Positions 35,416 through 51,052 of a stretch of DNA of 64,000 nt are shown in pieces. The position numbers were made by a program, and so were the translations under genes. The stretch is from contig JAUJNT010000004.1 in assembly GCA_030448005.1 (NCBI GenBank), positions 78,070-142,069 of the forward strand. The letters run 5' to 3'. Numbering within the stretch: position 1 is the first letter of the stretch; the number at the start of each line of letters is the position of its first letter. The notes under the pieces are model-generated. The model ran no database searches. It was not told where the DNA came from and saw nothing but the letters and a program-made list of their open reading frames with translations. The DNA is from Thermoleophilaceae bacterium. GTDB taxonomy: Bacteria; Actinomycetota; Thermoleophilia; Solirubrobacterales; Thermoleophilaceae.

Positions 35416-36844
35416 GCACAGGAGCACCGTCCGGTTGCCCCGCGCACGGCGACGGTCGCCGCCGAGGCCGATGTGCTCGTGGTCGGCGGCGGCCCGGCAG
35501 GCCTCGGCGCCGCCGTCGGAGCGGCGCGCGCGGGCGCCGACGTCGTGCTCGTCGAGCGGTACGGGTTCCTCGGCGGCAACGCGACCGCGTCGCTCGTGAT
35601 GCCGCTCATGTCGTTCCACAACGAGGTGCGGGCCGCCCGCGCGGCAGACCCGGCTGCAGAGGTGCGGATCATGCCAACAGATCACGGCCCCGGCGAGCCG
35701 GTCGTCGCCGGGCCGCTGCAGGAACTGCTCGACAGGCTCGTGCGGTCCGGCGGCGCTGTGTCGCACCTCCCCAGAGACCGGCTACACGGTCCCCTTCGAC
35801 CCCGAGCAGTACAAGCTCGCCATGCTCGACATGCTCGACGCTGCCGGTGTGCGGTACCTGTTCCACGCGTTCGCCAGCGGGGTCGCCGACGACGCCGTGG
35901 TGTTCGAGAGCAAGTCGGGCCCGCTTGCGATCCCGGCCACGGTGGTGGTCGACTGCACGGGCGACGGCGACGTGGCGGCGGCTGCCGGCGCCGACTTCGA
36001 GGTCGGCCGCGAGGAGGACGGCCTGACCCAGCCGATGACGCTGATGTTCCGGATGGTCGAGTTCGACCGGGGACGCTTTGCCGACTACGTCCGAGAGCAT
36101 CCGGATCAGTGGCGGGGAGTCCTCGGCCTATGGGACCTCGTCGCCCGGGCACAGGCGGCAGGCGAGCTCGAATTGCCTCGCGAGGACATCCTGTTCTTTG
36201 CCACCCCGCACGCGCGCGAGGTGAGCGTGAACAGCACTCGCACCAATCCGGGCCCGGCGATCGACACCTGGGCCCTGACTGCCGCCGAGTGGGCCAGCCG
36301 GCGCCAGATGCGTCAGATCGTGCGCTTCCTGCGCGAGTGGGTGCCCGGGTTCGAGGACGCCTATGCAGCCCAGAGCGGCACGGTCATCGGCGTGCGCGAG
36401 ACGCGCCGCGTGGTAGGCGAGTACATGCTGACCGGCGAGGACGTCCTTCAGGCGCGCGCGTTCGACGACGCGGTCGCGCGCGGCTCCTATCCGATCGACA
36501 TCCACAACCCACGCGGCGAGGGCACCGTGCTGAAGCGGCTACCGCCGGGCACCGCCTATGACATCCCGCTGCGCTGCCTGATCCCGCGGTCGACCGATCG
36601 TCTCCTCGTTGGCGGCCGCTGCATCTCGGGAACCCACGAGGCACACTCCTCCTACCGCGTCACGCCGATCGCGATGGCCACCGGGCACGCGGCCGGTGTC
36701 TGCGCGGCGCTCGCCTCGTCGAGCGATCTTCCGCCGCGCGAGGTGCCACACACCGATGTCCAGCAAGAGCTGCTGCGCCAGCGGGCGAGCCTGCGACCGG
36801 AGCTCGCACAGCGCCTCACCGAGCCTGAGCCCGATCGTCGTTGA
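35393..36844 (+). pseudogene. FAD-dependent oxidoreductase (FAD_oxidored type), frameshifted
   Basis: Family PF12831-like flavoprotein. The first part has DVLVVGGGPAGLGAAVGAAR and VLVERYGFLGGNATASLVMP. A shift near 35770 is needed to pass into SPETGYTVPFDPEQYKLAML and on through VVVDCTGDGDVAAAAGADFE to LLVGGRCISGTHEAHSSYRV and the end. The whole would be about 480 residues, the family length. The N-terminal region between 35393 and 35473 may also be shifted, since the best frame has no start codon before GTG at 35473. Substrate unknown. Sequence errors or decay are both possible. Confidence 0.65.
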
Positions 36845-36947: not shown

Positions 36948-37734
36948 TCAGCGGCGCAGGCGGATGGCGTTCATGTCGTTCTCGACGATCTCGTCGGCGC
37001 GCGCGATCAGGTCCTCGATGTCGTCGTGCTCGGCGTGGATGTACCTGCCAGTCAGTCGGTCGGCGCGACCGGAGGCGAGCGCGCGGACGAGCTGGGGCGC
37101 GAGCGCGGGCGGTGTCCACGGAGCGTCGTCTCCCAGCTTCTCCGTCAGCGCGGTGCGGACCAGTCCGGGACTGATCGTGAAGACCGCGATGCCGTGCTGC
37201 TTGAGCTGACCGGCGAGCACCTCACCGAAACGGTGCAAGGCGGCTTTGCTGGGACCGTAGGCGGTGCCGCCCGCCTTGCCCGGCGTCACCGGCAAGTGGG
37301 CGCCCCCGCTGCCGACGTTGACGATCCGCCCACCCCCGCGCGCCCGACCATTCCACGCAGGACCCGTTGGCAGCACAGGTAGGCCCCTAGCATGTTGATC
37401 TCGAAGACCCGCCACCACTCGCCGGCGTCGCCGTCCTCCCAGATCGGCGGCGCACCCGGCTGGACGCCGATGCCGGCGTTGTTGACCAGGAGGTCGATCG
37501 CGCCGACCTCGCGCTCGGTGTCCTCGACCATCCGCCTGACCGACGCCTCGTCTGAGACGTCCACCTCGAGCGCAAGGCCGCCGACCTCCTGTGCCACCCG
37601 CTCGACCTGCTCACGCGTCCGCGCCGCAACGGCAACCTGCATCCCCGCTTGGGCGAGCTCGCGTGCGATATTCGCCCCGATCCCGCGACCGCCGCCGGTG
37701 ACGAGCGCGACCTGGCCGAGAACTGATCCGCCAC
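36948..37734 (-). pseudogene. Short-chain dehydrogenase/reductase, frameshifted
   Basis: SDR with glycine-rich motif in GQVALVTGGGRGIGANIARE and the LVNNAGIGVQPG motif, then the catalytic Tyr-Lys as TAYGPSKAALHRFGEVLAGQ. One shift near 37717 separates the GTG start (ADQFS) from GQVALVTGG, and a second near 37335 separates QRVLRGMVGR from GGGRIVNVGSGGAHLPVTPG. Repaired, it is about 262 residues. The start is the base right after the grdA stop, so it is the last gene of the reductase operon. It might act on a product or carrier of that pathway; no substrate is evident. Confidence 0.7.
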
Positions 37735-38208
37735 CTACCCGTCGGCCCCCTCCGGCTTCTGCTCGCGCATGCCCTTCACGGCAACGGCTATCTCCTCGCC
37801 CTCGAGCACGTCGGCCATTACGCCGATCTGGTCCTCCCAGACCTCGTCGTCGATCTGGCTTCGGAACTCCGGCTCGAGTGCGTGATACACGGAGAGGCCC
37901 AACTGGGCCTCGGCCAAGGCGCCTGCATAGGTGGGATCGCCGAGCACCACTGTCTCGGCGGCGATCTCAGCGCTCTCCGGGTCCGGCGCTCCAAGGACCA
38001 CGACCAACTGTTCGGGTCCGTGCTCGTCGGCGAGGCGCTTGATCGTTTCCTGGCTATTCAGGTCCATGGCCCCCGAGGCCGTTCAGACGAAGCACTCCGT
38101 TGACGCGAAGGCCACGTTTCCGCCCGCGCTCTTCACGCACGCGGCGATCGCGGGACCTGCTATTCCGTCGCGCTCGCCGAGCACGACGATCTGCTTGCCG
38201 TCGAACAT
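37735..38208 (-). CDS. grdA: Glycine/sarcosine/betaine reductase selenoprotein A
   Basis: GrdA is the small selenoprotein that takes the carboxymethyl group from component B as a Se-carboxymethyl intermediate. The N-terminal half reads MFDGKQIVVLGERDGIAGPA and FASTECFV, then a TGA at 38085-38083, then TASGAMDLNSQETIKRLADE, exactly the family context C-F-V-Sec-T-A-x-G-A-M-D-L. Read as selenocysteine (U42), the protein is 157 residues, the usual length, ending after DQIGVMADVLEGEEIAVAVK. Neither half alone is a protein of any known family. It starts 6 bases after the thioredoxin stop and is followed directly by the SDR. A weak hairpin CCTG-AATAGC-CAGG lies 20 bases after the TGA. Confidence 0.95.
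38083..38085 (-). other. In-frame TGA read as selenocysteine in grdA
   Basis: TGA codon 42 of grdA, between the GTC and ACG codons in the C-F-V-U-T-A context that is invariant in this family as I know it. Decoding needs SelB, tRNA-Sec and a SECIS hairpin; none of the Sec machinery genes is in the window. Confidence 0.93.
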
Positions 38209-38213
38209 GGGTG

Positions 38214-38558
38214 CTAGCTCACCTCCTCCTTCATCTCGTCGAGGCTCTTGTCGAGCCAGGCGTTCAGTTCCGCGGGGCTGATCGTGGAGGCCGACAGGCG
38301 CGCGAGCTCCTCGCCGTCGCGCATCAGCAGGAAGGTGGGGAGCCCGTGAACGCCCAACTTGATGCAGACCCGTCGGGCCTTCGGCGCCTCGAGCTTCACC
38401 ACCTTCAGCTTGTCCGCGCGGGCGTCGGCCAGCTTCTCGACGTGGGGCATGAGCGCCAGGCACGGCTGGCAGTCGGGGCCCCACACGTCCACCAGCGTCG
38501 TGCCGCTCTCCACGAGCTCGTCGAAGTTCTCTCGCGTCGCCTCGGTCAGTCCCGCCAC
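38214..38558 (-). CDS. Thioredoxin of the reductase operon
   Basis: A 114-residue thioredoxin with a non-standard active site: W26-G-P-D-C30-Q-P-C33, rather than WCGPC. The WGPxCxPC form is what I remember from thioredoxins encoded inside clostridial grd operons. The cis-proline is in GVHGLPTFLLMRDGEELARL. The probable role is to reduce the oxidised selenoprotein after turnover. The GTG start is 4 bases after the grdC stop, and grdA follows 5 bases after its own stop. No thioredoxin reductase gene accompanies it. Confidence 0.93.
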   Translation of the reverse strand: MAGLTEATRENFDELVESGTTLVDVWGPDCQPCLALMPHVEKLADARADKLKVVKLEAPKARRVCIKLGVHGLPTFLLMRDGEELARLSASTISPAELNAWLDKSLDEMKEEVS

Positions 38559-38562
38559 CTGG

Positions 38563-39999
38563 TCATCCTCCCACTCCGTCGTTTCGCTCGAGTATCACGC
38601 TCATGCCGTCTGACTGCTCTGACATCCGTCCGAGGAAGAGCGAGCCCTTCGCGATCAGCTGCACCCGCCTGGCCTCGCCGCTCACCAGCCGCGCCCGCGC
38701 GTGGGGGAGGTAGCAGAGCGCCGAGGCGATGTGTCCCTGCGTCGGCGCGAAGCCCGGCATGCCGCGCCCTTCGACGAACTCGCCGATCTCCCCGCGTGCG
38801 AGGTCGCCGCGGCGCACCGCCAGCGCGGCCAGCGTCTTGTAGTTGCGCTCGGGCACGTTGCCCGAGCCCTGCGGCTCGGTGATCTCGGGGTTGTGGAGCT
38901 CGGTGGCGTAGTCGTCGACGTCGAGCATCCCCAGCCCAATCCGGTCGAGCGGCGCGATCGCGAGCGCCTCCATGACCTTCGGGTTTGAGGAGCCGGCGGC
39001 CACCGGGTGGCGCCCGACCGAGTCCAGGCGCACGCGCGGGGAGACGCCGTCGTCTGCCTCCACGAGCACCGCGGAGCCGCCGAGCACGTCCTCGAGCACC
39101 GGCATGTCGTGCTTGAGGTGGCCCTGGAACTTCATGCCGAGCTTGGGCAGCGAGCCGCCCGCCACCACCACCACGCGGCGAAACACGCCCGAGGCCACGA
39201 GGCTCCCGGCCACCACGAGCGCCGGCACGGGCGCGGCGCAGAAGTTCTTGACGTCCATCCCCGAGGCCTCGCTCAGCCCCCCCGCGGCCGCCACGGCCTT
39301 GGCCAGGTTGCCGCCGCCGCGCTGGTAGCGGTCCCCGATCGCCTCCTCCCCCGCGCCGATCACGTAGTCAATCGAGTCCGCCTCGATCTCGTGGTCTGCC
39401 AGCAGGCGCAGCAGCGCGAGCACGCCGCTTGCCTTGCCCGCCAGGTTCTCGAGCAGCACCCGCGCGGTCAGCGCCTCATCGAACTCGTCGGCGCGACGGA
39501 TCGCCCCGGCCAGGCGGTCGCCGCCGACGTGCAGGGGGAGCGCACCCGGCTCGGCGGCCACGGCCTCGGCGTCACCTCCCGCGTCCGCCACGCGCTCGAG
39601 GTCGATGCGCTCGCCCAGCGGGTGGCCCGCGAGCTTGTCTATGACCGCGTCGGTGTCGCCGCCACCCAGCTTGATGAGGTCGAAGTCATCCACCGCCGCC
39701 ATCAGCCCGAGGAACTCGTCCTCTGGCATCAGCTCGCCGGCGCCCGCAAAGCGGCCCTCGCCGTCGGGCGCCGCCCCGATCCACGGCCGCTCGGGCAGAT
39801 CGCGCGGGTGACGGGCGCCGAGGAACGCCTGGTGGGGGGCGTAGGCTACCGCCTGCTCGAAGGTGCGCAGCGAGCCGAGGAAGCGCTCCTGCAGCTCGGG
39901 ATCGCGGGGGAGCTCGCGGGACGGCTTCGAGCCGTGGCGCGCCAAGCCGGGAACGTGGGCGAGGACGGCGCTCGTGCCTGAGATGACTGGGCCGGTCAT
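38563..39999 (-). CDS. grdC: Glycine/sarcosine/betaine reductase component C, beta subunit
   Basis: A 478-residue KAS III/thiolase-like protein that accepts the acetyl group from selenoprotein A as a thioester. Family stretches: PVISGTSAVLAHVPGLARHG, TFEQAVAYAPHQAFLGARHP, LMPEDEFLGLMAAVDDFDLI, and MDVKNFCAAPVPALVVAGSL with candidate cysteine C254. Later come KHDMPVLEDVLGGSAVLVEA and GFAPTQGHIASALCYLPHAR. ATG at 39999 is used; a TTG at 40014 in the same frame would overlap the grdB stop. The partner grdD (acetyl-phosphate-forming subunit) is not found here. Confidence 0.93.
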   Translation of the reverse strand: MTGPVISGTSAVLAHVPGLARHGSKPSRELPRDPELQERFLGSLRTFEQAVAYAPHQAFLGARHPRDLPERPWIGAAPDGEGRFAGAGELMPEDEFLGLMAAVDDFDLIKLGGGDTDAVIDKLAGHPLGERIDLERVADAGGDAEAVAAEPGALPLHVGGDRLAGAIRRADEFDEALTARVLLENLAGKASGVLALLRLLADHEIEADSIDYVIGAGEEAIGDRYQRGGGNLAKAVAAAGGLSEASGMDVKNFCAAPVPALVVAGSLVASGVFRRVVVVAGGSLPKLGMKFQGHLKHDMPVLEDVLGGSAVLVEADDGVSPRVRLDSVGRHPVAAGSSNPKVMEALAIAPLDRIGLGMLDVDDYATELHNPEITEPQGSGNVPERNYKTLAALAVRRGDLARGEIGEFVEGRGMPGFAPTQGHIASALCYLPHARARLVSGEARRVQLIAKGSLFLGRMSEQSDGMSVILERNDGVGG

Positions 40000-40006
40000 T
40001 GACTCG

Positions 40007-41305
40007 TCATTCAAGCGGATCGCCGTCGAACACGGTCGGCTCGGTGACCGGCGTGGCCAGCGCCTGCAGCGCGCGCTCGAGCAACTGCCTGCGCCAGGCC
40101 CGCTCTCCCTCGGCGCTCAGTGAGGGATCGCCGGTGGGGTAGGGGATGCCGCGCGTAGGCACGATCCGCGGGGCGCCCACCCGCTGGGCGATCGAGACGA
40201 GGTTGCAGAGCAGCACCGTTGGGATGCCCGCCCGCTCCAGCTCTTTGCTCAGCGTTGACCCGCAACGCGTGCCCGTTCCTCACGTGGCGGTCAGAATGGC
40301 CGCTTGGATCCTCGCCCCGTGCAGCTCCGCCGCCCACTCGAGGCCAAACCGCCGCGCATCCGCCACGGTGGTTCCGTTGCCGGTGGTGGCGAAGTACTCG
40401 GTGTGAAGGCCCCCGATCGCCCCCTCGCCCTCGAGCTGGCGGGCCGCGTCGAGCGGGAGGATGCGGTTGGGCTCGGCGTTTGCCCACTGCGTGGAGAAGC
40501 CGCCGTGCACCGACTCGAACTCGCCCGCCTCGACGGAGTCACGGCCCTCGAGCGAGTGGCGAATCCACTTGCTGGCCCGCGCCGACTCGAGCCGGTCGGG
40601 GTTGCCCGCGGGCACGAAGCCGCCCTCGGTGAGCAGCGCTATCAGCGCGTCGGAGGGGTCGCTCAGCGGCGCGGCGGGGGTCACCTGGTCGAAGTCCGGC
40701 AGGGGGATCTCCGTGGCGTCGCGATCGCCGCCGAGACGCCGGAGCACCAGGGCCACCGCACGCTCGGCCGCGCTGCGCTCGGCCATCCGGTTGGTGCGAG
40801 CCACGGGGCCGATCCGCCCGTCCTCCGCGGTCAGCTCCGCGCCTGCCGCGAGCTTGCGTGCCGCGGCGGCGAGGCGCTCGAGCGAAGGGCCCATCTGGCG
40901 GGCGGTGGCGCCGCTCTCGATCACCGGGATACCCGCGGCCTCCGCCAGCCCCGGGTTGTCCGGGCTCATGGCTGCCACCGCCGGAAGCCCCGCTTCGGTG
41001 GCGGCGGCGAGGATCCGCGCGCAGGCCAGGCCGTAGCGCCCGCTCGTGAAGGCGGGGCCCGCAACCAGCAGCTCGGCTCCGGCCTCGCGCGCCTGCTCGA
41101 CCAGCGCCGCCGCGAACTCCGTGTGCCCCGACGCGTAGTCGTCGCCGCAGAAGGCGGTCCCGATCAGCTCGTGCTCGTCGCCCAGGAGCGCCGCCAAGCG
41201 CCTTCCCGGTCCGACCGCCCCCTCGCGCAGCTCGGGGCCGGCTCCGGCGGCATCCTCGCCGCCGACCCCCGCGAAGAACTGGTTGAGATAGTGGACGATG
41301 CGCAT
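40007..41305 (-). CDS. grdB: Glycine/sarcosine/betaine reductase component B selenoprotein
   Basis: GrdB/F/H-family selenoprotein, 432 residues including one Sec, the expected size. It starts MRIVHYLNQFFAGVGGEDAA and contains YASGHTEFAAALVEQAREAG and AMSPDNPGLAEAAGIPVIES. At codon 342 an in-frame TGA (40282-40280) follows IQAAILTAT and is followed by GTGTRCGSTLSKELERAGIP, then RIVPTRGIPYPTGDPSLSAE to the end. That is the family context for selenocysteine. The ATG overlaps the TGA stop of the GrdE-like gene by one base. Which of glycine, sarcosine or betaine it uses cannot be told. From memory, clostridial GrdB has U-G-T-C; here it is U-G-T-G. Confidence 0.94.
40252..40268 (-). promoter_or_regulatory. 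SECIS-like hairpin after the grdB TGA
   Basis: A perfect 6-bp stem GCGTTG/CAACGC with a five-base loop CGGGT begins 11 bases after the selenocysteine TGA, so the loop starts 17 bases downstream. Bacterial SECIS elements have a small G-bearing apical loop at about this distance. It is coding sequence at the same time. Function inferred, not tested. Confidence 0.6.
40280..40282 (-). other. In-frame TGA read as selenocysteine in grdB
   Basis: TGA codon 342 of grdB in the context LTAT-U-GTGTRCG. Translation upstream and downstream is continuous family sequence in one frame, which argues against a simple nonsense mutation. A stable hairpin follows at the right distance. Confidence 0.93.
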
Positions 41306-42576
41306 CAGGCCGCCTCGTGGCAGGTGAGCCTGCCCCAGCCGAGCGGGTTGAGCGCGCAGTAGACGGCGGCCGCGGGCAGCTCGAGCTCGTCGGTCGCGGG
41401 GCGGTCCTCGAGCAGGGCGATCTGCTCGCGGCCGATGGCTCGGTCGCACGCCGGCAACACCAGCCGCTCGTCGTAGTTGCCGGCGCTCACCATCGCGGTG
41501 GCGCGGCTCGGCGGGACCACGAGCGACGGGCCCGTGCCGTCGCGCCCGGCCATCTCGGCAAAGATGCCCACCGCCGTCACGCCCTCCCGCTCGAGGCCGT
41601 CCATCTTGAGCGATACGTCGGCATCGGCGTTGCCGCCGCCCTCCTTGGTGAGGATGGCGGCGTCGACCCCCAGCGACGCGCAGAGCCGGGCCGCGTGGGC
41701 CGAGACCATCTCCTTCGCGCCCTGCTCGATTGGCTCCGGGCACAGCACGAGCGCTGCCAGCCAGAGCTCATCGCACGCGCGTACGGCAGCTACCACGGGG
41801 TGGGTCTGATGCAGGAAGGTGGGGTTCTTGAGCGCGGGGTGGCCGTACTGGCCGCTGACCACCGCGCCGTCGTCGAGCTCGTTCGGGGAGATCGTGGTGG
41901 GCAGCCCGCCGGACAGGCTGCGCCCGTAGACAAACACGTCCTTGAACCTGCCCTGGGTCTGGATGTTGGTGACCACGGCCACGCGGGCGCGCCCGTCGGG
42001 GGCCGGGCCGGCCGGGTCGGCAAGCTCCTCGACCGCGTCGGGCTCGGTGTCGAGCGCCGCGTCGGCCAGGTGCACGGCAAGGCGCAGCACCCCGCGGCGA
42101 ACCGCGGCCTCCACGTCCTCCCAGGAGGCTTCGGGCGCGGGCTCGAACTCCAGCACGAGGTTGTGGGTGCCGGCGAGCGGGGACAGGGGCGCCACCGGGC
42201 CCGACATGTCGATGACGGCCTCCTGCGCGCGCGGGAGATACCCGGCGGCGAGCACAGCGGCGCCGCGCAGGATATGGGTCTCGCCCCGCCCCGGCGGCAT
42301 GGCAGCGCCGACGAAGCCCGGAAAGACGCCGCCGCCGCCCGCTCCCTTCGTGCACGGCTGAACGGCGTCGAGCGCGCCCACGATCCGCGCCGAGTCCCCC
42401 GGGGACGCGCACGCGAGGGCAACCCGGGCAAGCGCGGGATCGGCCAGGAGCTCGGAGGCCTCGGCCTCCGAGACGGTCAGCCGGCCTTGCTCGAGGCTCG
42501 TGCGATCCCCGAGCGTCAACTCATTGACATCGTGGACGAGGCGGCGTAGCCCCGGCCCGGCCCCTCCTTCGTTCAT
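41305..42576 (-). CDS. grdE: Component B alpha/beta-like subunit of glycine/sarcosine/betaine reductase (GrdE/GrdG type)
   Basis: A 423-residue homolog of the GrdE proprotein, close to the family length. It has NELTLGDRTSLEQGRLTVSE, GGGVFPGFVGAAMPPGRGET, QEAVIDMSGPVAPLSPLAG, ILTKEGGGNADADVSLKMDG and EMAGRDGTGPSLVVPPSRAT, all in family order. In clostridial GrdE a cysteine in a G-N-C-V-S-A-C-D-K-N-P-T-Y context is cut to make the pyruvoyl group that binds the amine. The aligned stretch here is VVSGQYGHPALKNPTFLHQT, without cysteine (comparison from memory). So substrate activation may differ. First strong gene of the operon; its ATG overlaps the stop of a possible 62-codon leader gene. Confidence 0.9.
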   Translation of the reverse strand: MNEGGAGPGLRRLVHDVNELTLGDRTSLEQGRLTVSEAEASELLADPALARVALACASPGDSARIVGALDAVQPCTKGAGGGGVFPGFVGAAMPPGRGETHILRGAAVLAAGYLPRAQEAVIDMSGPVAPLSPLAGTHNLVLEFEPAPEASWEDVEAAVRRGVLRLAVHLADAALDTEPDAVEELADPAGPAPDGRARVAVVTNIQTQGRFKDVFVYGRSLSGGLPTTISPNELDDGAVVSGQYGHPALKNPTFLHQTHPVVAAVRACDELWLAALVLCPEPIEQGAKEMVSAHAARLCASLGVDAAILTKEGGGNADADVSLKMDGLEREGVTAVGIFAEMAGRDGTGPSLVVPPSRATAMVSAGNYDERLVLPACDRAIGREQIALLEDRPATDELELPAAAVYCALNPLGWGRLTCHEAA

Positions 42577-46281: not shown

Positions 46282-46441
46282 CGGGGCGATCGGCCCGCTC
46301 TGAGCGGCGCCTCCATCGGCGTCTGCAAGGTTCCCTCCACCTAGCCAGTACCGCGCACGAGTGCTAGCGTGCCAAGCGCATCCTCCAGCCGCTTCTGGCC
46401 GTGCTCTCCGTGGGGGGCCGGTTCGGCAAGCGATGGAGAGC

Positions 46442-49400
46442 ATGATGCGGACAAGCGAGGGAGGCGGGACGGTGGCGAGCGTAGGCCTTTCCGCGGGTGC
46501 ACCGGGGGCGGTCGGAAGAAGAGGCATGGAATGGGCGTTCGCGCTGGCGGCAGCCCTGGGCTGCCTCGCCGCGGCATCGGCCGGATGGCTGGCGGACTTC
46601 CGGGACGGCCCGGGCCCCGCCGCGCCGGCGAAGGCAGACGCGCGTCAGATGCTGTCGGCAATGCCGCTGCGGTTCGAGGTCAATCGCGGACAGGTGGACG
46701 GCCAGGTCGACTTCGTCGCCCGCGGCGCGGGCTATGAGGTTTCGCTGTCACATCGGGGGGCGGCGATCGGGCTGGACCGTGGAGGCCGGCGCGCGGTGGT
46801 AGGGATGTCGGTGCTCGGGGCCAACGAGCGCGCGCGGGCTGCGAGCGTGGGGCGGGTGGCCGGGGTCAGCAACTATCTGGTCGGCTCAGACCCGCGCGGT
46901 TGGAAGCGCAACGTCCCGTCGTTTGAGCGTGTGCGCTACGACGGTGTCTATCCGGGGATCGACATGGTCTACCGCGGCAGCGGCAAGCGGCTCGAGTACG
47001 ACTTCCTGGTCGCCCCGGGCGCCGATCCGCGCGACATCGCGCTGCGCTTCACGGGCGGGCGGGTGTCGCTGGCCGCCAACGGCGACCTTCTGGTGCACGC
47101 CCGCGGCGGCACCCTGCGCGAGAAGCGCCCGTTCGCGTACCAGCGCATCGGCGGCGCGAGGCGTAGGGTCGAGAGCCGCTTCGTCCTGGAGCCCCGAGGC
47201 CGCGCGACCTTCCGGGTGGGTGACTACGACCGCTCCAAGCCGCTGGTCATCGACCCGGTGCTCGCCTACTCGACCTACATCGGTGGCGGGGCTCAGGGCG
47301 AAGGGTCCGGCGGCCCGGGCGGCGAGTCGGGGGAGGGCGTCGCCGTGGACGGCTCCGGCAGCGCCTACGTCGTGGGCAGCACGAACGCGACCGCGCCGAC
47401 TGCGTACCCGACCAAGGGTGCGATCCAGGGTGCGAACGGCGGCGGCATCGACGCCGTCGTCACCAAGCTCAACCCGGCCGGCGACGACATTGTCTACTCG
47501 ACCTATCTCGGCGGCGGGGGCGCCGACCGCGCCTTCGCCGTCGCGGTGGACTCCGACGGGGAGGCGTCCGTGACCGGCCAGACGGCGTCGACCGGGGCGA
47601 CGCCGTTTCCGACGAAGAACGCCATCCAGCCCGCCAACGCCGGCAGCAACGACGTGTTCGTGGCCAAGCTGAACGCGGCCGGCGACGACCTTGTCTACTC
47701 GACCCATCTCGGCGGCACGGGGTCCGACCGCTCGTTCGGCATCGCGCTGGACTCCACCGGCGCGCCGTACGTGGCCGGCTACACCGACTCGGCCAACTTC
47801 CCCACCCGTGGTGCGGTGGACGCCAGCCATAACGGAGGCGACGACGCGTTCGTCGCCAAGCTCGCAGCCGACGGCTCGGCCCTCGCCTTCTCCACCTATC
47901 TCGGCGGGAGCGCCGCCGACGGCGCCGAGGCGATCGCCGTGAACGAGGCCACCGGCGACGCCTACGTGTCCGGCGGTACCGCCTCAGCCGGCTTCCCCGT
48001 AACCCCGAATGCGCTCCAGACGACGCGCTCTGCGGGGGCGGAGAACATCATGGACGGCTTCGTATCCCGCGTCAACGCCGACGGCTCGGCCCTCGAGTAC
48101 TCGACCTTCCTGGGCGGCTCGGGTCGCGACCAGGCCTCTGGCGTCGCCGTGGACTCGGGCGGCGAGGCCTACGTGACGGGCGCGACCAGCTCGGACGACT
48201 TTCCGCTTGAGGCTCCGCTTCAGGGCACGCGCGCGTCGGTCTCCACGATCGATGACGCCTTTGTCACGAAGCTGAACGCCGCCGGGTCGGCCGCCACCTA
48301 CTCCACGTTCCTCGGCGGCCGCGAGATCGACGAGGGCAGCTCGATCGCCGTCGACTCGACCGGCGCGGCGTACGTGGGCGGCACCTCCGACGGGTTCGGC
48401 GACTTCCCGTTGATAAACCCGATCGGGCAGGGGAGCGGCAACCAGGACGCGCTCCTCGTCAAGCTCAACCCGGCAGGCTCGGCGGCGGAGTACTCGACTC
48501 TCCTCGGCGGCAGCGACGGGGACATCGGCAAAGCCATCGCCGTGGATCCTGCCGGCAACGCGTATCTCGTCGGCCAGGCCAACGCCTATGCCTCCCCGCC
48601 CGGCAACTTCCCGACGACCGGCAACGCCTTCCAGGCCCGGGCGCCCGGCGGGTCGGAGGTGTTCGTGGCCAAGGTCGTCGCGGCGCCCGCGTCCCCGCTC
48701 GTGACCTCGCTGCGCTCGCGCAGCGGCCCAGCGACGGGCGGCACGAAGGTGACGATCAGCGGGAACGGCTTGGGCGGCGCCACCGCGGTGAAGTTCGGCG
48801 ACACGCCGGCGGCCCGCTTCACCGTCGACTCCGACACCCAGATCACCGCCGTCAGCCCCGCGCACGACCTTGGCAAGACGACCGTCACGGTGACCACGCC
48901 GGCCGGCACCACGCCGGCCAACCCGGTCGCGACGTTCGAGTACGCCGAGGGCACGTGGACCCAGACCGGCTCGCCGGGGGACGCGCACTTCTCGGCTCCG
49001 CTGGTCCTCCTCGCCGACGGGCGGGTCCTGCTGCCAAGCGGCGAGGCCACGAGGGGCGGCCCGACGATTGGCTCGTCGGAGATCTACGACCCCAAGACCC
49101 GGTCGTGGACCAAGACGGACGACATGGCTACCTCGCGCCACACCCACACCGCCACGCTGCTCGAGGGTCCCGCCTGCCGGAGCGCGGCGCCGCCGAGCTA
49201 CTGCGGCAAGGTGCTCGTCACCGGCGGCTTCGCCCTCGGTGTGACGACGAGCGCGCAGCCGGTGCTCGACAGCGCCGAGCTCTATGACCCCAAGACCGGC
49301 ACGTGGACCGACGCGGGCGCCATGACCGCCCGCCGAGCGCTCCACGCCGCGATCCTGCTGGACGGTCCCCCCTGCCGCACTGGCTCCGCACCGGAGTACT

Positions 49401-51052
49401 GCGGCAAGGTGCTCGTCGTCGGCGGGCGGACGTGCGACAGGCCGTCCCCGGGTGCCTGCACGAGTGCGCAGCGGACGAACACCGCCGAGCTCTACGACCC
49501 GGCCACCGGGATGTGGACGAGGACGGAGAGCATGTTGAAGCAGCGCTACAACTTCGACATTGCCACCCTCCCCGACGGCACCGTGCTGGCCGCCGGAGGG
49601 TTCGGCACCGGCCCCACCTCGGCCGAGGTCTATGACCCCGCAGGGGGCGGGTGGAGCGAGACCGGGTCACTGCGGTCGCGCACCCGTGCAAGCGCGGCGC
49701 GGCTCCCGGATGGCCGCGTGCTCGCGGCGAGCGGGTTTGGCGCTAACAACACGGCCGACATCTACGATCCCGCCACTAGGCAGTGGACCCCCGCCGCCGA
49801 TATGAAGACGTCGTACCGCTTCAACTACCACTACGCGACGCTGCCCTCGGGCAAGGTGCTCTTCGCGGGTGGCAGCAGCGGAGGCGACACCTCCGAGGCC
49901 TACGATCCCTCCAAGAACGAGTGGGTTTCGACCGGACTGCTGAACTTCTCGTACGGCACCGCTGCCGGGCTCGGGTATACCGTGCGGACGGTCGTCCTGT
50001 CCAGCGAGCCCGACAGGTTCGAGGCCGACTCGGCGGTCTGCGGCAACGACTGCGGCAAGCTCCTGATGGCCGGCAACACGGACTACAAGACCGCCGAGCT
50101 CTACACGCCAGAGCCGAGGATCGACTCGCTGAGCCCGTCGGCCGGCGGGCGGGGCACGTCTGTCCGCATCACCGGTCAGGGCTTCACCCACGACGTGAGG
50201 GCGGTGCTGTTCGGCAGCCAGCCGGCGGTGAGCTTCAGGGTGGACTCCTATGGCCAGATCACGGCGGTCGCGCCGACGGGCAGCGGGCCGGTGAGGGTCA
50301 CCGTCGTCAACGAGGGTGGCAGGGCGACCTCTGCCGGGTCGTTCACTCTCGAGGCTTCTGCGACTCCGCCGGGGCGAGAGTCGGCCTCGTTCCCGGGTTG
50401 TCCGACGTTGACTGCGAACGTGATCCGTGGCACGGCGGCGGCGAACTCGATCACCGGCACGACGGGGGCCGATCGGATCTTTGCCGGTACGGGTAATGAC
50501 GTGGTGGATGCTCTTGCGGGCAACGACTGCGTGGATCTCGGGACGGGCAGTGACCGGGGCCAGGGCGGTCTTGGCGATGACCTGTTGGTGTCGGGAACGG
50601 GCAGGGACCGGGTGAGCGGCAGCTCTGGCAATGACCGGATCCGCGGCAACGCGGGCAACGACCGCCTCGACGGCGGCCGGGGCAGCGACCGGGTGCTGGG
50701 CGACGCGGGCAACGACACGTTGCTCGGGAGCTTCGGAAATGACCGTCTGCTTGGTGTGAGCGGAAGGGATCGGATCAGCGGTAGCCGCGGGCGTGACCGG
50801 ATCGCCGGCGGCGCTGGTAACGACCGGATCTCCGGTGGAAGCAGCGGCGATCGGATCGCGGGCGGCTCTGGCGGTGACCGCATCAGCGGCAACTCGGGCG
50901 GTGACCGGCTAAGCGGCAACTCGGGCAACGACCGGATCACCTCGCTCGATAACTCACGTGATCGCGTGAACTGCGGAACCGGCCGTGACAGGGTCCTTGC
51001 CGACCGCAAGGACGTCGTCTCCCGCAACTGCGAACGCGTCCGGCGGCGATGA
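46442..51052 (+). CDS. Giant secreted repeat protein (DUF7948-like, SBBP, IPT/TIG, Kelch, RTX-like)
   Basis: About 1,536 residues. A hydrophobic segment near residues 25-48 (EWAFALAAALGCLAAASAG) should serve for export. Next is a beta-rich domain with LRFEVNRGQVDGQVDFVARG and YPGIDMVYRGSGKRLEYDFL (60-275), about eight SBBP beta-propeller repeats (STYLGG, VAVD, FVAKLN; 275-740), an IPT/TIG domain (745-835), Kelch-type repeats (AELYDPKTGTWT; 840-1215), a second IPT/TIG (1225-1310), and a C-terminal array of glycine- and aspartate-rich nonapeptide units such as GNDRISGGS (1325-1510). Probably a cell-surface or released adhesin- or enzyme-like protein, Ca-binding inferred. GGAGAG lies just before the two ATG codons at 46442 and 46445. 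Confidence 0.85.
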   Translation: MMRTSEGGGTVASVGLSAGAPGAVGRRGMEWAFALAAALGCLAAASAGWLADFRDGPGPAAPAKADARQMLSAMPLRFEVNRGQVDGQVDFVARGAGYEVSLSHRGAAIGLDRGGRRAVVGMSVLGANERARAASVGRVAGVSNYLVGSDPRGWKRNVPSFERVRYDGVYPGIDMVYRGSGKRLEYDFLVAPGADPRDIALRFTGGRVSLAANGDLLVHARGGTLREKRPFAYQRIGGARRRVESRFVLEPRGRATFRVGDYDRSKPLVIDPVLAYSTYIGGGAQGEGSGGPGGESGEGVAVDGSGSAYVVGSTNATAPTAYPTKGAIQGANGGGIDAVVTKLNPAGDDIVYSTYLGGGGADRAFAVAVDSDGEASVTGQTASTGATPFPTKNAIQPANAGSNDVFVAKLNAAGDDLVYSTHLGGTGSDRSFGIALDSTGAPYVAGYTDSANFPTRGAVDASHNGGDDAFVAKLAADGSALAFSTYLGGSAADGAEAIAVNEATGDAYVSGGTASAGFPVTPNALQTTRSAGAENIMDGFVSRVNADGSALEYSTFLGGSGRDQASGVAVDSGGEAYVTGATSSDDFPLEAPLQGTRASVSTIDDAFVTKLNAAGSAATYSTFLGGREIDEGSSIAVDSTGAAYVGGTSDGFGDFPLINPIGQGSGNQDALLVKLNPAGSAAEYSTLLGGSDGDIGKAIAVDPAGNAYLVGQANAYASPPGNFPTTGNAFQARAPGGSEVFVAKVVAAPASPLVTSLRSRSGPATGGTKVTISGNGLGGATAVKFGDTPAARFTVDSDTQITAVSPAHDLGKTTVTVTTPAGTTPANPVATFEYAEGTWTQTGSPGDAHFSAPLVLLADGRVLLPSGEATRGGPTIGSSEIYDPKTRSWTKTDDMATSRHTHTATLLEGPACRSAAPPSYCGKVLVTGGFALGVTTSAQPVLDSAELYDPKTGTWTDAGAMTARRALHAAILLDGPPCRTGSAPEYCGKVLVVGGRTCDRPSPGACTSAQRTNTAELYDPATGMWTRTESMLKQRYNFDIATLPDGTVLAAGGFGTGPTSAEVYDPAGGGWSETGSLRSRTRASAARLPDGRVLAASGFGANNTADIYDPATRQWTPAADMKTSYRFNYHYATLPSGKVLFAGGSSGGDTSEAYDPSKNEWVSTGLLNFSYGTAAGLGYTVRTVVLSSEPDRFEADSAVCGNDCGKLLMAGNTDYKTAELYTPEPRIDSLSPSAGGRGTSVRITGQGFTHDVRAVLFGSQPAVSFRVDSYGQITAVAPTGSGPVRVTVVNEGGRATSAGSFTLEASATPPGRESASFPGCPTLTANVIRGTAAANSITGTTGADRIFAGTGNDVVDALAGNDCVDLGTGSDRGQGGLGDDLLVSGTGRDRVSGSSGNDRIRGNAGNDRLDGGRGSDRVLGDAGNDTLLGSFGNDRLLGVSGRDRISGSRGRDRIAGGAGNDRISGGSSGDRIAGGSGGDRISGNSGGDRLSGNSGNDRITSLDNSRDRVNCGTGRDRVLADRKDVVSRNCERVRRR
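50470..50940 (+). repeat. RTX-like nonapeptide-encoding repeat array
   Basis: A run of about 17 degenerate 27-bp units encoding G-x-D-R-[IVL]-x-G-x-x, for example RIRGNAGNDRLDGG, RISGGSSGDRIAGG, RISGNSGGDRLSGN. Compared with classic RTX (GGxGxDxLx), the Asp is often followed by Arg, so calcium affinity is uncertain. The tail ends with a cysteine pair (VNCGTGRDRV and SRNCERV). Confidence 0.7.

What the first reader, a model, noticed from the sequence alone, without database searches (positions are those of the whole stretch)
41305..42576. GrdE-like subunit lacks the cysteine that should form the pyruvoyl cofactor
In the clostridial proprotein, as I remember it, cleavage at a Cys in G-N-C-V-S-A-C-D-K-N-P-T-Y makes the pyruvoyl group that binds the substrate amine. 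Here the aligned segment is SGQYGHPALKNPTFLHQT: the flanks (D-G-A-V-V-S-G and K-N-P-T) match, but the cysteine region is replaced. A protein without that residue could not make the pyruvoyl group in the known way. It may act on betaine-like substrates without a primary amine, or on another substrate class, or use a different electrophile.
Basis: partly seen in the sequence, partly recalled or inferred. Interest (0 to 1): 0.75.

Follow-up and report, generated by a model that had tools for sequence, protein, structure and literature searches.

The report
Pyruvoyl-free glycine-reductase-like system in soil Actinobacteria
A complete selenium-dependent operon related to glycine reductase, widespread in uncultured soil actinobacteria, has a substrate subunit that cannot form the pyruvoyl cofactor used for glycine, and lacks the usual acetyl-phosphate-making subunit, so it probably reduces a different small acid by a simpler route.

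Summary
In detail: the GrdE-like protein (42576-41305, minus strand) reads SGQYGHPALKNPTF where pyruvoyl-forming GrdE/GrdG read SGNCVSACDK or SGNCVAPCDK; no cysteine is left there. It is not an isolated oddity: the same G-[Q/N]-[Y/F/L]-G-H-P segment occurs in the window plus 52 loci, nearly all uncultured Actinomycetota, in a conserved operon grdE-grdB(Sec)-grdC-(trx)-grdA(Sec). The genome has tRNA-Sec, SelA, SelB and SelD. Lack of the cysteine is itself known for betaine GrdI and fluoroacetate FarE, and I found it in several other lineages; in my tree the cysteine-bearing forms make up one group. New here: the clade is neither GrdI nor FarE; its GrdB also lacks the HGGxD aspartate (47/47), usually the STUG serine (41/47) and the first UxxC cysteine (47/47), whereas all 13 cysteine-bearing operons keep Asp and Ser; and no GrdD is encoded. 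Best reading: a pyruvoyl-independent protein B whose selenolate directly displaces the leaving group of some X-CH2-COO- substrate without a Schiff base, feeding GrdA and GrdC. Substrate and end product are unknown.

The parts
41305..42576 (-). grdE-like gene, protein B alpha subunit without pyruvoyl cysteine (423 aa)
   Evidence: PF09338 E 1.5e-89; translation
41814..41855 (-). codons for about SGQYGHPALKNPTF, the segment that replaces SGNCVSACDKNPTY
   Evidence: translation and alignment
40007..41305 (-). grdB-like selenoprotein gene; its ATG overlaps the grdE stop by one base
   Evidence: PF07355 E 1.8e-105; read with TGA=Sec
40280..40282 (-). in-frame TGA read as selenocysteine (TATUGTGTRCG)
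   Evidence: frame stays open and homologous on both sides; Sec motif in 47 of 47 intact sequences
38563..40014 (-). grdC, component C beta subunit, with conserved C259, N391, H428 and clade-specific C434
   Evidence: NF040746 562.8 bits over cut-off 450; residue conservation
38214..38558 (-). thioredoxin gene (CQPC)
   Evidence: PF00085 E 4e-17
37735..38208 (-). grdA, selenoprotein A
   Evidence: NF040748 213.7 bits over cut-off 130
38083..38085 (-). in-frame TGA read as selenocysteine in grdA (CFVUT)
   Evidence: conserved in 43 of 43 sequences

Best explanation
The operon encodes a selenium-dependent reductase built on the glycine reductase plan, in a pyruvoyl-independent form. The GrdE-like subunit stays uncleaved and acts as the structural and substrate-holding partner of GrdB. 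The GrdB selenolate directly attacks the alpha-carbon of an X-CH2-COO- substrate whose group X leaves without Schiff-base activation. The resulting carboxymethyl group passes to selenocysteine in GrdA and is reduced with the operon's thioredoxin; GrdC takes the acetyl group on its KAS III-like cysteine. As GrdD is absent, the acetyl group probably ends as acetyl-CoA or free acetate rather than acetyl phosphate. Shown: the gene set, the two Sec codons with full Sec machinery, the missing cysteine and the coordinated GrdB changes, their conservation, no GrdD in the genome. Inferred: no cleavage, direct displacement, carboxymethyl transfer, acetyl fate. The substrate is not identified; the loss of the GrdB Asp that the amine-type enzymes share argues mildly for a substrate without an ammonium group.
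For: Window motif lacks any Cys. G-[Q/N]-[Y/F/L]-G-H-P in 53 of 53 clade sequences. Operon order grdE-grdB-grdC-(trx)-grdA conserved in most of about 50 MAG contigs. Sec in GrdB 47/47 intact and GrdA 43/43; tRNA-Sec, SelB, SelA, SelD in the genome. GrdA and GrdC pass curated equivalog cut-offs, so downstream chemistry should be carboxymethyl/acetyl. Co-variation: all 13 Cys-bearing operons have HGGYD and STUG in GrdB; the clade has Ser or Ala for the Asp in 47/47 and Ala for the STUG Ser in 41/47. Precedents without the cysteine: GrdI and FarE (PMC10838667; alignment). No GrdD in the genome or loci.
Against: No biochemical data; no conserved transporter or substrate gene flanks the operon. Betaine GrdH keeps the Asp (HAGFD) although GrdI is also pyruvoyl-free, and several other Cys-free lineages keep it too, so the Asp change need not report on the ammonium group. 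Neither GrdE nor GrdB has a solved relative that could place the active site.
Confidence: 0.6

Rival explanations
1. It is a betaine reductase (GrdI/GrdH function) of soil actinobacteria: the quaternary amine leaves as trimethylamine, no pyruvoyl needed.
For: GrdI also lacks the cysteine; betaine is a common osmolyte.
Against: Window GrdE is not a sister of GrdI in the tree; GrdB scores 375 bits against the betaine GrdH model with cut-off 775; HAGFDP of GrdH is HGGFST here; no betaine transporter seen beside the operon, unlike E. gilvus.
Confidence: 0.15
2. It reduces glycine or sarcosine, with the carbonyl made by another residue or not needed at all.
For: The nearest NCBIfam models are sarcosine GrdG/GrdF; part of GrdB fits the published glycine motif TxGNxTxV (PMC9751293).
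Against: Scores far below cut-offs (197 of 780; 426 of 800); HGGxD of both published motifs is not met; the STUG Ser is Ala; no conserved Ser/Thr/Cys within SGQYGHP (S241 is G in L005 and L008).
Confidence: 0.12
3. It is a haloacetate reductase like FarE/FarB (fluoroacetate, chloroacetate).
For: FarE lacks both cysteines and FarB lacks the CxxC (PMC10838667); window GrdB also lacks the first cysteine after Sec.
Against: FarE model 118.5 of 675 bits; no antiporter or radical SAM gene recognised beside the operon.
Confidence: 0.1
4. The operon is decaying or non-functional (assembly artefact or relic).
For: The neighbouring short-chain dehydrogenase is split over two frames.
Against: Five intact genes, two conserved Sec codons, and strict motif conservation at 44-81% GrdE identity across many independent MAGs.
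Confidence: 0.03

Closest known systems
Betaine reductase protein B, GrdI/GrdH
   Same: GrdE-family subunit without pyruvoyl cysteine, paired with a Sec GrdB
   Different: different lineage; GrdH keeps HAGFD, STUG and UGTCTRC; the E. gilvus operon has GrdD and a BCCT transporter
Fluoroacetate reductase FarE/FarB of Cloacibacillus porcorum
   Same: no pyruvoyl cysteines; the GrdB partner lacks cysteine(s) after Sec (PMC10838667)
   Different: FarE model far below cut-off; far operon has an antiporter and a radical SAM gene
Glycine reductase GrdE/GrdB and sarcosine reductase GrdG/GrdF
   Same: family, gene pair, Sec, GrdA and GrdC
   Different: those keep SGNC..C, HGGYD and STUG; Bacillota operons with GrdC also have GrdD; the window lacks all of these
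D-proline reductase PrdA/PrdB
   Same: distant homologue; PrdA has a Cys at the aligned site
   Different: ring-opening chemistry without GrdA/GrdC; PrdA model 48 of 700 bits

Membership tests
Glycine/sarcosine/betaine reductase component B, GrdE family (PF09338) | curated Pfam score | tested here: met
   300.8 bits, cut-off 22.2
Pyruvoyl-forming GrdE/GrdG | Cys after SGN that becomes the pyruvoyl group | tested here: not met
   SGQYGHP in window and clade
Pyruvoyl-forming GrdE/GrdG | proprotein is cleaved | not testable with these tools
   needs protein
Glycine GrdB motif of PMC9751293 | AHGGxD[QTAP]...TxGNxTxV | tested here: not met
   VHGGFST...TTGNGTTV: second half met, first half not
Sarcosine GrdG/GrdF (NF040793, NF040794) | curated cut-off | tested here: not met
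   197.3 of 780; 426.3 of 800
Betaine GrdH (NF040795) | curated cut-off | tested here: not met
   375 of 775
Fluoroacetate FarE (NF053623) | curated cut-off | tested here: not met
   118.5 of 675
Selenoprotein GrdB | in-frame TGA at the active-site motif plus Sec machinery | tested here: met
Selenoprotein GrdB | bacterial SECIS hairpin after the TGA | tested here: inconclusive
   fold no better than shuffles for grdB, slightly better for grdA
Components A and C of glycine reductase | GrdA (NF040748) and GrdC (NF040746) cut-offs | tested here: met
   213.7 of 130; 562.8 of 450
Complete acetyl-phosphate-forming component C | GrdD (NF040747) present | tested here: not met
   no match in the genome or loci

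The most novel reading that the evidence does not exclude
A new substrate class of the glycine reductase superfamily: soil actinobacteria use a pyruvoyl-free, GrdD-free selenoenzyme to reduce a non-amine X-CH2-COO- compound straight to acetyl-CoA, with GrdC (extra invariant C434) taking over the acetyl step.
Probability: 0.25. Interest if true: 0.75.

Novelty: new variant of a known kind. Interest (0 to 1): 0.5.

Why it matters
Glycine-reductase chemistry is known mainly from fermenting anaerobes. Here a coherent, widely conserved variant sits in uncultured soil actinobacteria with selenocysteine machinery, without pyruvoyl site and without the acetyl-phosphate subunit. It gives a natural test of what the pyruvoyl group is for, and points to a selenium-dependent reduction in soils for which I found no description.

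Tried and rejected
Viral contigs: no relatives. Solved structures by sequence: none for GrdE or GrdB; Foldseek of the GrdE model (pLDDT 89): nothing below E 0.02. FarE identity for other Cys-free lineages: all far below cut-off. Conserved substrate gene in the flanks: none; mainly sel genes recur beside some operons. Rooting on PrdA: its branch is 6.5 changes per site, so the root is untrustworthy and the direction of the cysteine change is not decided. Pyruvoyl from a Ser in the segment: rejected, that Ser is Gly in two members. SECIS by simple folding: inconclusive. Papers on this operon in Thermoleophilia or Acidimicrobiia: none found in the library, which is not proof of absence.

Full report
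Observation. The gene at 42576-41305 (minus strand) encodes a 423-aa member of PF09338 (E 1.5e-89). It reads DDGAVVSGQYGHPALKNPTFLHQT. The reference pyruvoyl-forming sequences read SGNCVSACDKNPTY (Acetoanaerobium noterae GrdE) and SGNCVAPCDKVTTF (Peptoclostridium acidaminophilum GrdG). The pyruvoyl cysteine and its second cysteine are both absent.

Surroundings. The gene starts a tight minus-strand operon: grdE; grdB with an in-frame TGA at 40282-40280 (TATUGTGTRCG); grdC; thioredoxin; grdA with TGA at 38085-38083 (CFVUT). GrdA and GrdC pass the NCBIfam equivalog cut-offs. The genome (3.23 Mb, 96% complete) holds one PF09338, one PF07355 and one GrdA, a tRNA-Sec and SelB, SelA next to SelB and SelD. 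Reading both TGAs as selenocysteine is therefore well supported, although simple folding did not show a clear SECIS hairpin. No GrdD is found in the genome.

Relatives. A scan of genome contigs gave 53 loci, nearly all uncultured Actinomycetota (Thermoleophilia/Solirubrobacterales, Acidimicrobiia, Pseudonocardiales), plus one Dormibacterota, one Methylomirabilota and one distant Desulfobacterales. Apart from contigs cut short, most show grdE-grdB-grdC-(trx)-grdA, and none shows grdD; in a few no trx or grdA was detected. The GrdE segment is G-[Q/N]-[Y/F/L]-G-H-P in the window and 52 loci (one has A for the first G), never with a cysteine; the Desulfobacterales protein reads SGNYVIPSN. Selenocysteine is kept in 47 of 47 intact GrdB and 43 of 43 GrdA. 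Some loci have SelD-, SelA- and SelB-like genes beside the operon (named by me from the sequences), but no transporter or substrate gene recurs.

How widespread is the missing cysteine. PMC10838667 states that FarE (fluoroacetate) and GrdI (betaine) lack the cysteines, and the betaine-type sequences here (SGSFMPCSSKWSTY, beside GrdH) agree. Desulfobacterota and other Actinomycetota hold further forms without it. In a careful tree with the motif columns removed, the 12 cysteine-bearing GrdE/GrdG rows form one group (support 91/81) with GrdI next to it; the window clade is far away. So the cysteine marks one part of the family. Whether it was gained there or lost elsewhere is not settled, because the PrdA outgroup (which has a Cys at the aligned site) is too long a branch.

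Coordinated changes in GrdB. In all 13 operons with the GrdE cysteine, GrdB has HGGYD and STUG, and 12 of 13 have UGTC. In the window clade the Asp is Ser (36) or Ala (11) in 47 of 47, the Ser before T-U is Ala in 41 of 47, and the first cysteine after Sec is Gly in 47 of 47. The Ser of STUG was proposed in PMC10838667 as a possible formylglycine carbonyl source; it is Ala in the window, so that alternative electrophile is unlikely here. Betaine GrdH keeps Asp and Ser, so the clade differs from betaine reductase too. Other cysteine-free lineages vary at these positions, many keeping Asp. The cysteine-bearing forms are one clade, so this is one evolutionary contrast, not 13 independent ones.

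Mechanism. From established glycine reductase biochemistry (own knowledge; Andreesen 2004 as cited in PMC10838667), protein B delivers a carboxymethyl group to selenocysteine of GrdA, and component C makes acetyl phosphate. Since GrdA and GrdC are ordinary, the substrate is most likely of the form X-CH2-COO-. With no pyruvoyl, the selenolate of GrdB would displace X directly, as proposed for betaine or fluoroacetate. The GrdE His246, kept throughout the clade, could hold or protonate the leaving group (speculation). GrdC keeps a KAS III-like Cys259 with Asn391 and His428, and the clade has an invariant extra Cys434 (about 1 of 14 others). From memory, GrdD Cys359 carries the acetyl group in Eubacterium acidaminophilum; without GrdD, acetyl-CoA or acetate is the likelier product. 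GrdD is also not beside GrdC in the Desulfobacterota and other actinobacterial operons fetched, so that feature is wider than this clade; there it was tested only locally.

Structure. AlphaFold models of GrdE (pLDDT 89) and GrdB (86) were made; no solved relative was found for GrdE by fold or for either by sequence. No distances could be measured with the tools at hand.

Verdict. Lack of the cysteine alone is known. The coherent, conserved clade with its matching GrdB changes and missing GrdD in soil actinobacteria was not described in the papers I could search, and I rate it a new variant of a known kind.

Noticed in passing
36948-37642 (-): Short-chain dehydrogenase gene just after grdA is split over two frames (ORFs 37642-37286 and 37418-36948), by frameshift or assembly error.
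   Followed up: no
L124-L142 (Desulfobacterota and Actinomycetota): Many further GrdE-like lineages with other replacements of the pyruvoyl segment (GEYHWAAMRNPT, GDYHIAAMRVAT, ST---HTIRKMETY, GNYVVPANRTPT), with Sec GrdB; GrdD not adjacent. Several may be unnamed substrate classes.
   Followed up: partly
38563-40014 (-): GrdC of the clade has an invariant extra Cys434 near the conserved His428, nearly absent elsewhere.
   Followed up: partly
L038-L089 flanks: SelD-, SelA- and SelB-like genes lie beside the grd operon in several actinobacterial loci; a formate-dehydrogenase-like gene in about three.
   Followed up: partly
46361-51052 (+): 1563-aa repeat protein with SBBP-like, kelch-like and RTX-like GGxGxD repeats, judged by eye.
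   Followed up: no
35473-36844 (+): FAD-dependent oxidoreductase (PF12831) whose N-terminal part seems to lie in another frame than its C-terminal part.
   Followed up: no
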